This document shows positions 8,825-11,685 of a stretch of DNA of 64,000 bases, in pieces; position 1 is the first letter of the stretch, and every line of letters begins with the position of its first letter. The position numbers and the translations under genes are program-made. The stretch is from Lachnospiraceae bacterium (GTDB lineage: Bacteria > Bacillota > Clostridia > Lachnospirales > Lachnospiraceae): NCBI GenBank assembly GCA_900199595.1, contig FZRB01000011.1, forward strand, positions 1 through 64,000, in the 5' to 3' direction. The notes under the pieces were generated by a model, which saw only the letters and a program-made list of their open reading frames with translations, did not search any database and had not been told where the DNA came from.

Positions 8825-10183
8825 TTGGATATTAGAGAAACTGCATATGACATACTTAAGAAAATTGAATATGAAGATCTATATGTAAATGACATCCTCC
8901 ATAACGCTTTACGGAGGATGCAATTTTCTGATAAGAGGGACAGGGCGTTTCTCACAAGGCTTGTTGAAGGTGTGACTGAAAGAAGGATATCGTTGGATCA
9001 TCTCATCGATAAGCTTTCCACCGGAAAGAAAAAGCTTAAGCCCGATATCAGGATTCTTCTTCGTATGGGCATTTATCAGATAAGATATATGGAGGCTGTT
9101 CCGGACAGAGCGGCCATATCGGAAACTGTAGAGCTTGTTAAAAGGAGTGGCTACGCCGGCCTTTCGGGCTTCGTAAATGCGCTCCTCAGGAAGGTATCTG
9201 AACTGTCTGCAGAGGGCAAGCTGGACAGCTTTCTTGTCAGCAGAATGGATACCAGATATTCGACTCCAAAGTGGCTCTGTGATTTACTGGTTGAAACCTA
9301 TGGTAAGGAAAATGCAAAGCTTATCCTAACGGATCAGTATAAGGAGCATGATACAGTCATAAGGTCTAATCTTCAGAAGACTTCAATAGAAGAGCTTAAG
9401 GAAAGACTTATATCTAAGGGGCTGGAGGTTTCCGGCAGCAATCTTAAGCTTGAACCTGAGCAGAAGAATGAGCTGGATAAGAGAGTACTCAGAATCGCAA
9501 ATTATGATTCGGTTCCGAGACTTCCGGGATTCCGAGACGGTCACTTTATCATTCAGGATGAAACCTCTGTACATACCATTCTGAGAGCCGGAATAAAGCC
9601 CGGAGATTTGGTGCTGGATATGTGTGCAGCTCCCGGAGGAAAAAGCCTTCTTGCTTATGAACTGACCGCCAATGATGAAAAATGCGGTCTCATAATTTCC
9701 AGAGATATATCGGAAGACAAGATAGATAAAATAAGAGAAAATGCCGAAAGACTGGGAGTTCCTGTTAGTGATGGGGATATTCCGGCAGGCATAAAGCTTG
9801 AGATAAAAGATGCTACAGAGCTTGATGGGGAATTTGCAAAAAGACCTTCAGATAAAAAAGCTGATGTGGTGCTCGTAGATGTACCCTGTTCAGGCCTTGG
9901 CATCATCGGAAGAAAGAATGATATCAAGTATCATACATCTCCCGAAGCTATGAAAGAACTGGCAGAGCAGGGACTTAGAATACTGAAAAATGCGTCTCAC
10001 TACGTAAAGCAGGGCGGAAGGATATGCTTCTCAACCTGTACCATTAATCCGGGAGAAAACCAGGATGTAGTACGCGCATTCCTCGAATCTGATGAAGGGA
10101 ACAGATTTGAGATAAGAGAAGAAAGAACGTTTCTACAGGGTATAGATGGAAGTGACGGATTCTATTATTGTATATTTTTTTAG
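8825..10183 (+). CDS. rsmB: 16S rRNA (cytosine-967-C5)-methyltransferase
   Basis: A 452-aa SAM-dependent RNA methyltransferase. An N-terminal NusB-like domain (about 1-135) contains FVNALLRKV. The methyltransferase domain has the SAM motif VLDMCAAPGGKSLLAYE (about 262-278), the PCSGLG motif in VLVDVPCSGLGIIGRKND (about 349-366), and the catalytic-cysteine motif FSTCTINPGENQDVV. The start is TTG, preceded by GAGGATATAGGG. The gene ends at the edge of the palindromic element. Confidence 0.92.
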   Translation: MDIRETAYDILKKIEYEDLYVNDILHNALRRMQFSDKRDRAFLTRLVEGVTERRISLDHLIDKLSTGKKKLKPDIRILLRMGIYQIRYMEAVPDRAAISETVELVKRSGYAGLSGFVNALLRKVSELSAEGKLDSFLVSRMDTRYSTPKWLCDLLVETYGKENAKLILTDQYKEHDTVIRSNLQKTSIEELKERLISKGLEVSGSNLKLEPEQKNELDKRVLRIANYDSVPRLPGFRDGHFIIQDETSVHTILRAGIKPGDLVLDMCAAPGGKSLLAYELTANDEKCGLIISRDISEDKIDKIRENAERLGVPVSDGDIPAGIKLEIKDATELDGEFAKRPSDKKADVVLVDVPCSGLGIIGRKNDIKYHTSPEAMKELAEQGLRILKNASHYVKQGGRICFSTCTINPGENQDVVRAFLESDEGNRFEIREERTFLQGIDGSDGFYYCIFF

Positions 10184-10189
10184 ATTATT

Positions 10190-10390
10190 TCCGCGTCGAG
10201 CTGTAACTTCGCTGTCACGAGATGATATGCCTGAGAGGACTCTACTCTCGTACGGTTCGGGTACCCCTAGCGGTCGCTTCGCTCGCTAAGCTCTCGCTTC
10301 GTCTTTGACTCGCGAATCGCTAAGCGCCGAGACCCGAAACGGTCCCTCAGGCATACACTCGTGCCCAGCTACGTCAGCTCGTTCGCGATT
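10190..10390. repeat. Palindromic unit 1
   Basis: Nested exact inverted pairs share a centre near 10290: CGAGCTG (10197-10203) with CAGCTCG (10375-10381), TATGCCTGAG (10226-10235) with CTCAGGCATA (10346-10355), and TTCGGGT (10256-10262) with ACCCGAA (10332-10338). Between them lie the repeated GCTAAGC words. As RNA it would fold into one long interrupted hairpin. Confidence 0.8.
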
Positions 10391-10400
10391 ATACGTTAAG

Positions 10401-10607
10401 TCGCGAGCAAGTAAATGAAAAAGCGATGTGCAGAGTATGTATGCGAGACCATAAGGGTCGCGGTGCTTAGCGATTCACGAGCCAACGGCGATGTGAGAGC
10501 TTAGCAAACGAAGCGTAAGCGTAGTGGTCCGTTCGGGAAACCCGCCATGAGCGAGAGCGATGTCGAGCATACATACTGCTGCACAAGCTTATTTTACTTG
10601 CCGCGGA
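10401..10607. repeat. Palindromic unit 2
   Basis: Nested exact inverted pairs share a centre near 10505: GCAAGTAAA (10407-10415) with TTTACTTGC (10593-10601), TGTGCAG (10427-10433) with CTGCACA (10579-10585), and AGTATGTATGC (10434-10444) with GCATACATACT (10567-10577). The spacing of the arms is nearly constant, which shows a single long hairpin rather than chance pairs. Confidence 0.8.
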
Positions 10608-10653
10608 TAAAGTTTATAAAAGTATACTTCTTTAGAATATTTAGGTGAATATC

Positions 10654-11685
10654 ATGACAAATCACGAGTTATCCTCCATGTACATGGATGAGCTAACTGA
10701 ATATGTGAAGGAAAAGGGCTGGCCGGCCTTCAGGGCGAAGCAGATCTTCGAATGGCTTCATAAGAAGCATGTGACATCTGCGGCAGACATGACCAACCTT
10801 TCCAAAGAGATGAGAGAAGACCTGGAAAAGGATATGTGCAAGATATCCTATGTGATGCATCAGACAAGTGCCACTGACGGCACCTCAAAGTTCCTCCTTG
10901 AGATGGAGGACGGTCAGAGAATCGAGACAGTCTTCATGAAGTATCATCATGGTAATTCCATCTGCATATCTTCCCAGGCGGGCTGTGCCATGGGCTGCAG
11001 ATTCTGTGCCTCCACCATAGGCGGCTGTATAAGAAATCTCACGACCGGTGAGATGCTTGGCCAGATATATACAGTTCTTAACATTTTAGGTGAAGAGGTA
11101 TCCAACATCGTGGTTATGGGTACAGGTGAGCCTCTTCAGAATTACGATAATCTCATCAGGTTCATAAAGCTTATTACCGATGAGAAGGGCTATAATCTCA
11201 GCAAGAGAAGCATTACGGTCTCTTCCTGCGGTATAGTTCCGATGATTAAAAAACTGGCAGACGATGACCTGGGGATTACATTTGCGCTCTCACTTCATGC
11301 TCCTACTGATGAAAAGAGAAAGACTCTTATGCCAATAGCAGAGAAGTACTCCATAAAGGAAACTCTGGAAGCAACGGATTATTATTTTGAGAAAACAGGC
11401 AGAAGAATATCCATAGAATACAGCATGATGGGAGGAATAAATGATTCCGACAAGGATGCTGAGCTGCTTGGAAAGCTGCTGAAGGGCCGCGGATACCATG
11501 TAAATATGATTCCGGTGAACCCTGTAGATGAAAGAGAGTTTGTCAGAAGCAGCAGGGAGCAAATAGAGGAATTTAAGAAAATACTTGAAAAATTTGGGAT
11601 AAATGTTACTATTAGGAGAGGTATGGGCAGAGATATTGATGCTGCCTGTGGTCAGTTAAGAAGAAAGTATGGTGTGAATAATTGA
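10654..11685 (+). CDS. rlmN: 23S rRNA (adenine-2503-C2)/tRNA methyltransferase RlmN
   Basis: A 343-aa radical-SAM methyltransferase that methylates A2503 of 23S rRNA and A37 of some tRNAs. The 4Fe-4S motif is CAMGCRFC (about 108-115), preceded by SICISSQAG. GTGEPLQNYDN and SLHAPTDEKRKTLMPI are typical of the family. The C-terminal methyl-carrying cysteine lies in AACGQLRRKYG. I chose the ATG at 10654 because TAGGTGA sits five bases upstream; a GTG at 10645 would add three residues. It lies directly downstream of the palindromic element, and the next gene overlaps its stop codon. Confidence 0.94.
   Translation: MTNHELSSMYMDELTEYVKEKGWPAFRAKQIFEWLHKKHVTSAADMTNLSKEMREDLEKDMCKISYVMHQTSATDGTSKFLLEMEDGQRIETVFMKYHHGNSICISSQAGCAMGCRFCASTIGGCIRNLTTGEMLGQIYTVLNILGEEVSNIVVMGTGEPLQNYDNLIRFIKLITDEKGYNLSKRSITVSSCGIVPMIKKLADDDLGITFALSLHAPTDEKRKTLMPIAEKYSIKETLEATDYYFEKTGRRISIEYSMMGGINDSDKDAELLGKLLKGRGYHVNMIPVNPVDEREFVRSSREQIEEFKKILEKFGINVTIRRGMGRDIDAACGQLRRKYGVNN

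What the first reader, a model, noticed from the sequence alone, without database searches (positions are those of the whole stretch)
10184..10612. Two adjacent, mutually inverted ~200-bp palindromes fill the rsmB-rlmN gap
Seen directly: each half is an imperfect palindrome with several exact 7-11 bp nested pairs, and the halves are related (45 of 55 positions between 10281-10335 and the reverse complement of 10455-10509). The outer edges mirror too (CCGCG/CGCGG). The GC-rich composition differs from the flanks and there is no ORF. It may be a decayed non-autonomous mobile palindrome that duplicated head-to-head, or a large structured RNA ahead of rlmN. I do not recognise a described family.
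Basis: seen in the sequence. Interest (0 to 1): 0.8.

Follow-up and report, generated by a model that had tools for sequence, protein, structure and literature searches.

The report
Self-flipping palindromic DNA repeats in Lachnospiraceae
The gap between two housekeeping genes holds one copy of an apparently undescribed family of long hairpin-forming DNA repeats, scattered through the genomes of gut bacteria of the family Lachnospiraceae, whose arms keep matching and whose middles turn round in place in a way that points to DNA copying events rather than to a working RNA.

Summary
Window 10170-10628 holds two long imperfect hairpins, mutually inverted, between imperfect terminal repeats, in the rsmB-rlmN gap. 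It belongs to a dispersed family. The own genome has 21 core hairpins, and four near-full copies of this double form, the window's included. A covariance model finds the core in 45 of 61 same-genus genomes. In samples it finds 8 other genomes of the family and one weak hit outside it.

Base pairing covaries very strongly (362 double-change cells against 112 shuffled), but not in the RNA manner. G.U does not exceed A.C in the core (18:32) or outer arms (137:125); RNase P of the same genus shows 16:5. Gene orientation is unbiased (24:22). At three orthologous loci the interior matches at 96-100% only after inversion.

Best reading: non-autonomous mobile palindromic DNA. Template switching or recombination between the arms keeps them complementary and flips the middle. 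A strand-asymmetric core (T.T mismatch 111 of 111, GNRA loop 109 of 111) is kept by something unidentified. No transposase, target duplication or clean empty site was found.

The parts
10170..10199 (+). left terminal inverted repeat (GTATATTTTTTTAGATTATTTCCGCG...); contains the rsmB stop codon (10181-10183)
   Evidence: pairs imperfectly with the right end; similar ends in other own-genome copies. The GTATA itself also lies in rsmB codons shared with relatives, so the exact border is uncertain
10221..10359 (-). hairpin A: conserved asymmetric core, A-type, structured strand is the minus strand
   Evidence: CM R1 hit E 8.4e-38; folds to -61.6 kcal/mol
10246..10249 (-). GNRA-type loop (GAGA on the minus strand) of the side hairpin; in L008 a chain of small hairpins lies in this loop
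10377..10411 (.). central spacer palindrome GCTCGTTCGCGA...TCGCGAGCAAG between the two hairpins
   Evidence: sequence; largely conserved in the four near-full copies
10431..10581 (+). hairpin B: B-type core (GACCATAAGGGTCGCGG ... CCGTTCGGGA), structured strand is the plus strand
   Evidence: CM R1 hit E 3.2e-30; type by signature
10553..10556 (+). GNRA-type loop (GAGA) of the side hairpin of B
10598..10628 (-). right terminal inverted repeat (AGTATACTTTTATAAACTTTATCCGCGG read on the minus strand)
8825..10183 (+). rsmB (16S rRNA methyltransferase), upstream neighbour
   Evidence: Pfam PF01189, PF01029
10645..11685 (+). rlmN (23S rRNA methyltransferase), downstream neighbour; mechanical start GTG 10645, a likelier ATG at 10654
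   Evidence: Pfam PF21016, PF04055; the choice of start is inference

Best explanation
A member of a new family of non-autonomous, interspersed palindromic DNA elements of Lachnospiraceae. SHOWN: a conserved, strand-asymmetric hairpin core is dispersed in many copies. It occurs alone or as a divergent pair; in four own-genome copies the pair sits between imperfect terminal repeats. The arms outside the core differ from copy to copy yet stay complementary. Orthologous copies gain double Watson-Crick changes and one-sided mismatches without preferring G.U. At several loci the interior is inverted in place between relatives. INFERRED: the arms act as inverted repeats during replication or recombination. 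Template switching between them copies one arm onto the other (restoring and changing pairing) and turns the middle round. The core persists because something recognises it, most likely as a hairpin of single-stranded or cruciform DNA, and new copies spread through an enzyme supplied in trans that I could not identify. No role in rlmN expression is needed to explain it, although an effect on read-through of the operon is possible.
For: Dispersal: 29 match segments in the own genome (both strands, so one copy can give several), four near-full copies 83-100% identical at unrelated sites, the window included; 45 of 61 genus genomes. Covariation: 111 distinct copies, 96.0% of cells paired, 362 double-change cells against 112+-9 shuffled and 5-32 in slid structures. 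Outer arms: own-pair duplex mean -30.0 against -18.5 for swapped arms, 62 copies. DNA-type pairing: G.U 18 / A.C 32 in 25 core pairs; 137 / 125 in outer arms of 104 copies; 13 orthologous comparisons, WC to G.U 13, WC to A.C 21, double WC changes 29. Controls: RNase P variable pairs 16 / 5 (Fisher p 0.003); tRNAs 23 / 0. Orientation: structured strand with the genes 24, against 22. In-place inversion: L195/L218 core identity 0.67 direct, 1.00 flipped, flank segments 94.2 and 96.9%; L216/L245 0.67 / 0.96, flank segments 88.4-94.6%; L033/L142 0.66 / 0.96, flank segments 86.5 and 87.4%. Template switching is reported to give multi-base compensatory changes, stem extension and inverted loops (PMC8794818; outline, abstract and passages).
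Against: No transposase or recombinase partner: PF01797 (Y1/RAYT) is not found in seven genomes with 9-34 copies: G068 (34), G016 (20), G004 (17, 58% complete), G073 (13), G033 (11), G067 (10), G061 (9). No recurrent transposase stood out among ORFs near copies. The 6 terminal-repeat sites of the own genome, and the 3, all lie in known copies. No clear target-site duplication and no clean empty site. The GNRA loop (109 of 111, seven variants, third base always a purine in these) and the invariant core bases would also suit an RNA. No close sister of the own genome was at hand, so inversion is shown in relatives, not at the window locus. Of 25 comparisons 16 show the same orientation, and 6 of the 9 inverted ones match only 0.62-0.76 after flipping, so replacement cannot be excluded there. 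The G.U deficit rests on alignments; the RNase P contrast is significant but modest (16:5 against 16:30).
Confidence: 0.6

Rival explanations
1. A mobile, multi-copy structured RNA (or RNA gene) family: the structured strand is transcribed and folds, with a GNRA-capped side hairpin, and covariation reflects selection on the RNA.
For: Very strong covariation; GNRA loop in 109 of 111 with seven variants and invariant internal-loop bases; low folding energies.
Against: No excess of G.U over A.C in core, arms or orthologous comparisons, unlike RNase P and tRNA; no strand preference relative to genes, 24 against 22; flipping in place; both strands of the window element fold about equally well; no Rfam match at gathering score. 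No transcript data were available.
Confidence: 0.15
2. A folded single-stranded-DNA mobile element like REP/RAYT units or integron attC sites: an enzyme recognises the hairpin of one strand (T.T mismatch, GA/A internal loop, GNRA-type loop) and moves it.
For: Strand-specific conserved mismatches in a hairpin without G.U preference; head-to-head heterodimers as described for REP dimers (PMC3733652, passages); mostly intergenic copies.
Against: The Y1 transposase family is not found in seven copy-rich genomes; no other candidate enzyme stood out; size and sequence differ from REPs.
Confidence: 0.2
3. A phase-variable invertible switch (inverton) turned by a site-specific recombinase.
For: The interior is inverted between relatives at several loci; arms are inverted repeats.
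Against: Sites are dispersed beside many different genes; arms differ between copies, so no common recombinase site is evident. Neighbouring recombinases and promoters were not searched for specifically.
Confidence: 0.05

Closest known systems
REP / BIME / REPIN repeats with RAYT transposases (GTAG and CGTC families)
   Same: Multi-copy palindromes, often head-to-head dimers, including heterodimers (PMC3733652, passages)
   Different: The core alone is 141 model positions, against 20-40 bp; no Y1 transposase found in seven copy-rich genomes; arms vary per copy
Bacterial MITEs
   Same: Short, non-coding, dispersed, with inverted ends (GTATAC...CCGCGG in the double form)
   Different: No autonomous parent found in the own genome, no clear target duplication, the conserved part is in the middle rather than at the ends
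Mitochondrial hairpin elements of sponges and fungi (RHE, double-hairpin elements)
   Same: Dispersed, probably mobile hairpins, including double hairpins (PMC2800124, passages; PMC4478555, search listing only)
   Different: The sponge elements have conserved stems and variable loops; here arms vary and the core is conserved; bacterial chromosome
Template-switch mutation footprints in RNA genes (PMC8794818; outline, abstract and passages)
   Same: Multi-base compensatory change, stem extension, loop inversion
   Different: There loop inversions are rare and typically of 4 nt, some of 7-8; here interiors of about 140-165 nt are inverted between relatives in a dispersed repeat

Membership tests
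REP/REPIN-RAYT | short (20-40 bp) palindromic unit | tested here: not met
   core model of 141 positions
REP/REPIN-RAYT | GTAG or CGTC tag at the stem foot | not tested
   CGTC follows the stem in several of nine G088 copies, which may be chance; no systematic test
REP/REPIN-RAYT | Y1 (HUH) transposase gene in the genome | tested here: not met
   PF01797 in 36 of 61 genus genomes, but not found in G068, G016, G004, G073, G033, G067, G061, which hold 9-34 copies; two of these are under 80% complete
MITE | terminal inverted repeats | tested here: inconclusive
   imperfect ends of about 28 bp in own-genome copies; solo hairpins not tested for them systematically
MITE | target-site duplication | tested here: inconclusive
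   none evident by eye in four near-full copies; no clean empty site found
MITE | autonomous element with the same ends | tested here: not met
   6 own-genome places with up to 3 mismatches, all in known copies; relatives not searched
Structured RNA family | match to a curated family | tested here: not met
   no Rfam match at gathering score; one hit at E 4.8, 14 bits against a cut-off of 88
Structured RNA family | RNA-type covariation with G.U tolerance on the structured strand | tested here: not met
   covariation yes, but G.U does not exceed A.C
Structured RNA family | discrete transcript | not testable with these tools
   no expression data
Inverton | inversion between inverted repeats | tested here: met
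   three loci at 96-100% flipped identity
Inverton | site-specific recombinase and invertible promoter | not tested
   not searched for specifically
Integron attC | RYYYAAC/GTTRRRY ends recognised by IntI | not tested
   motif recalled, from no call; only a loose resemblance of structure

The most novel reading that the evidence does not exclude
The conserved asymmetric core is the folded single-strand DNA substrate of an unidentified recombinase: a mobile element class with large hairpins that insert into the loops of existing hairpins, nest inside them, and flip in place, without the HUH enzyme that serves REPs. The S-hairpin site of G018/G065 and the hairpin chain in the GNRA-type loop of L005/L008 would be traces of loop-targeted insertion.
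Probability: 0.2. Interest if true: 0.75.

Novelty: new variant of a known kind. Interest (0 to 1): 0.55.

Why it matters
Strong covariation is usually taken as proof of a working RNA. Here hundreds of covarying changes come with no G.U signature, no strand preference and visible flipping, so the family is a natural test case for telling RNA selection from DNA template switching. Many copies per genome in related species make arm-to-arm copying and inversion measurable. If the core is an enzyme's substrate, a new recombinase remains to be found.

Tried and rejected
RNA gene or riboregulator: rejected as first choice on the G.U / A.C test, strand bias and flipping. An earlier version of the outer-arm test mixed weakly paired copies into its totals (68 G.U, 55 A.C, p 0.28) and was redone with the same outcome. 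RAYT/IS200 mobilisation: rejected as a general explanation. Recurrent neighbouring transposase: none stood out among ORF clusters (ORFs of 90 aa or more in loci with mostly 1.5-kb flanks); the 14 largest clusters look like ordinary genes or reverse-frame ORFs judged by eye, and no family search was run on them. Larger autonomous element: six variant copies (L007-L011, L013) looked like ends of a longer element, but comparison of 8-12 kb stretches showed shared sequence of only about 500 bp. Plasmid and phage collections: no match; IMG/VR: one stretch with the exact core pattern. Empty site: the apparent junction in G078 turned out to be a deletion derivative that keeps one arm. Terminator or attenuator role: not tested. 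Literature: the listings showed no title describing this family in the held open-access library (most subscription journals missing); only 10 of 2,135 papers were listed. (GNRA in DNA) was seen as a listing only and not used.

Full report
WHAT IS THERE. Between rsmB (8825-10183) and rlmN (from 10645/10654), window 10170-10628 holds two hairpins in opposite orientation. Hairpin A (10221-10359) has its conserved 'structured strand' on the minus strand, hairpin B (10431-10581) on the plus strand. A spacer of about 70 bases lies between them and imperfect terminal inverted repeats (GTATA..TTT..CCGCG) outside. The quoted match of 45 of 55 is exact. Folding is far beyond dinucleotide shuffles on either strand. 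No ORF of 60 aa or more is listed in the gap. Rfam has no match at gathering score and one meaningless hit at E 4.8. Gene names rest on Pfam.

A DISPERSED FAMILY. blastn of the element against its own genome gives 29 match segments on both strands, including four near-full copies (100, 87, 85 and 83% identity; the first is the window) at unrelated places. Plasmids and phages give none. Of 61 genomes in the relatives search, 21 (own included) match at E 1e-3, all of the same genus; none of the 24 from other families does. An exact 18-base core pattern finds 38 stretches in the collection of species genomes, all titled Lachnospiraceae bacterium or Eubacterium sp., among them metagenome genomes from ruminants and the isolates C6A11 and AC2031. 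A covariance model from 42 copies finds the core in 45 of 61 genus genomes, up to 36 per genome and 21 in the own one. In a sample of the order it finds 9 of 295 genomes, the own one and eight of the same family. In a sample of the class it finds 5 of 391, four of the same family (own included) and one weak hit outside it (31 bits, not examined). These searches used stricter filters that lose weak matches.

SITES. One search printed the rsmB-rlmN gap of 30 genus loci; 27 could be read through (L105 ends at the contig edge; of L111 and L114 only 700 bases were printed, without such a hairpin by eye). Three of the 27 show this family: the window, L110 with a single core hairpin in the gap, and L115 with the right terminal repeat and part of an outer arm but no core hit. 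Others are short or hold unrelated small hairpins (L106, L116, by eye). Of 71 copies examined for context, 3 lie inside a mechanically called ORF. Of the 46 between genes of one direction the structured strand runs with the genes in 24 and against them in 22; double units add one to each side. Some sites are shared by descent between species, for example upstream of purH and near panC and glgP (gene names by eye from translated ORFs).

DOUBLE UNITS. In all 14 loci with two hits, and in L279, the two hairpins stand in the same divergent geometry (15 of 15). Nine of these 15 pair a B-type hairpin with an A/other-type one, in three genomes (G000, G004, G068); six have no B-type member by the signature used. 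The double form is therefore not a local duplication.

COVARIATION, BUT OF THE DNA KIND. On 111 distinct copies 96.0% of cells pair, 18 of 27 pairs show changes on both sides, and there are 362 double-change cells against 112+-9 in shuffles and 5-32 in slid structures. That alignment was fitted to the model, which favours pairing; alignment A1, made without a structure, shows double changes in 14 of 27 pairs. Outside the core, arms that cannot be aligned between most copies still pair with their own partner: mean duplex -30.0 against -18.5 (sd 6.2) for swapped arms; in 22 of 62 copies no other arm scores better, in part because some copies are close relatives of each other. Yet wobble pairs are not preferred. 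Core pairs other than the two conserved U.G ones give G.U 18 and A.C 32. Outer arms of 104 copies give 137 and 125, p 0.50. In 13 orthologous comparisons (not all independent) one-sided changes from Watson-Crick pairs go to G.U 13 times, to A.C 21 times and to other mismatches 34 times, beside 29 double Watson-Crick changes; 13 pairs that were G.U in the folded reference are Watson-Crick in the partner, a class with no A.C counterpart because the folding program does not pair A with C. Controls: RNase P from 25 genus loci (24 distinct) gives 16 G.U to 5 A.C in variable pairs, 28 to 8 in all counted pairs (Fisher p 0.003 for the variable pairs against the hairpin's 16 to 30); 9 tRNAs give 23 to 0, though the tRNA finder itself favours pairing.

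IN-PLACE INVERSION. I compared 25 pairs at 15 loci, chosen as pairs matching on both flanks with one hit each; pairs with double units or only partial flanks were left out. Nine pairs at 7 of the 15 loci have the structured strand inverted relative to the flanks: L033/L142, L142/L208, L036/L198, L053/L143, L216/L245, L146/L245, L192/L196, L195/L218, L219/L224. The clearest is L195/L218: flank segments 94.2 and 96.9% identical, core 0.67 direct and 1.00 flipped, outer arms in place. L216/L245 and L033/L142 are 0.96 flipped against 0.67 and 0.66. The other six inverted pairs are 0.62-0.76 flipped and weaker evidence.

THE CORE IS NOT FREE TO DRIFT. Arm-to-arm copying alone should erase mismatches, but a T.T mismatch between the arms is kept in 111 of 111 copies, and the side-hairpin loop is GNRA in 109 of 111 with seven variants (GAGA 40, GGAA 24, GAAA 15, GCAA 12, GCGA 10, GGGA 7, GUGA 1). 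Something recognises this strand. GNRA loops are stated to be exceptionally stable in DNA as well as RNA in PMC8794818 (passage), so this does not by itself decide for RNA.

NESTING. Two observations suggest that hairpins gain or lose material at their tips. First, at one site G065 (L294) has only a terminator-like 'S' hairpin of a multi-copy family, while G018 (L279) has about 205 bases including the core at that hairpin's tip; S copies elsewhere share a similar tip of their own. Insertion in G018 and deletion are both possible; the shared S tip favours insertion. Other hairpins (L310 clearly, L307-L309 less so) look like cores that lost their middle. Second, in L005 and L008 a chain of five small perfect hairpins lies in the GNRA-type loop of hairpin A, by comparison with L013 and L001; the two chains are similar, so this may be one event.

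MECHANISM. Template switching between arms is reported to cause multi-base compensatory changes, stem extension and inverted loops (PMC8794818; outline, abstract and passages). It, or recombination between the arms, accounts for covariation without G.U preference, per-copy arms and flipping. How copies spread is not shown. The Y1 transposase of REP systems is not found in seven genomes with 9-34 copies, no transposase stood out beside copies, and the terminal repeats found in the own genome lead only to known copies.

VERDICT. Observation confirmed; interpretation partly supported. An unusually large and dynamic kind of bacterial interspersed palindrome. Its value lies in showing that covariation can be DNA-made, and in the open question of what recognises the core.

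Noticed in passing
L005 and L008 (own genome, C13 and C30), inside hairpin A: A chain of five perfect stem-loops with three-base loops (e.g. CATATCGC-TTT-GCGATATG) lies in the GNRA-type loop; pieces of similar chains appear in L066, L070, L076, L087 of other species.
   Followed up: partly
L302-L305, L314, L315 (G018, G065, G078): A separate multi-copy terminator-like hairpin family ('S') whose basal stem differs per copy but pairs, with a shared tip.
   Followed up: partly
L058-L063 in the own genome: Six copies carry a different palindrome of about 240 bp (CAATGAATCGATAGC...) in place of hairpin B.
   Followed up: partly
L103 (IMG/VR contig IMGVR_UViG_3300012894_000123): One copy of the core pattern on a 44.7-kb contig labelled viral.
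   Followed up: no
G088 copies L165, L171-L178: Near-identical inner part in most, unrelated but complementary outer arms of roughly 18-20 bp, and recurring ACAG and CGTC just outside in several copies.
   Followed up: partly
L190 (G064) and L199 (G068): The same orthologous gap holds a single hairpin in one species and a divergent pair in the other.
   Followed up: no
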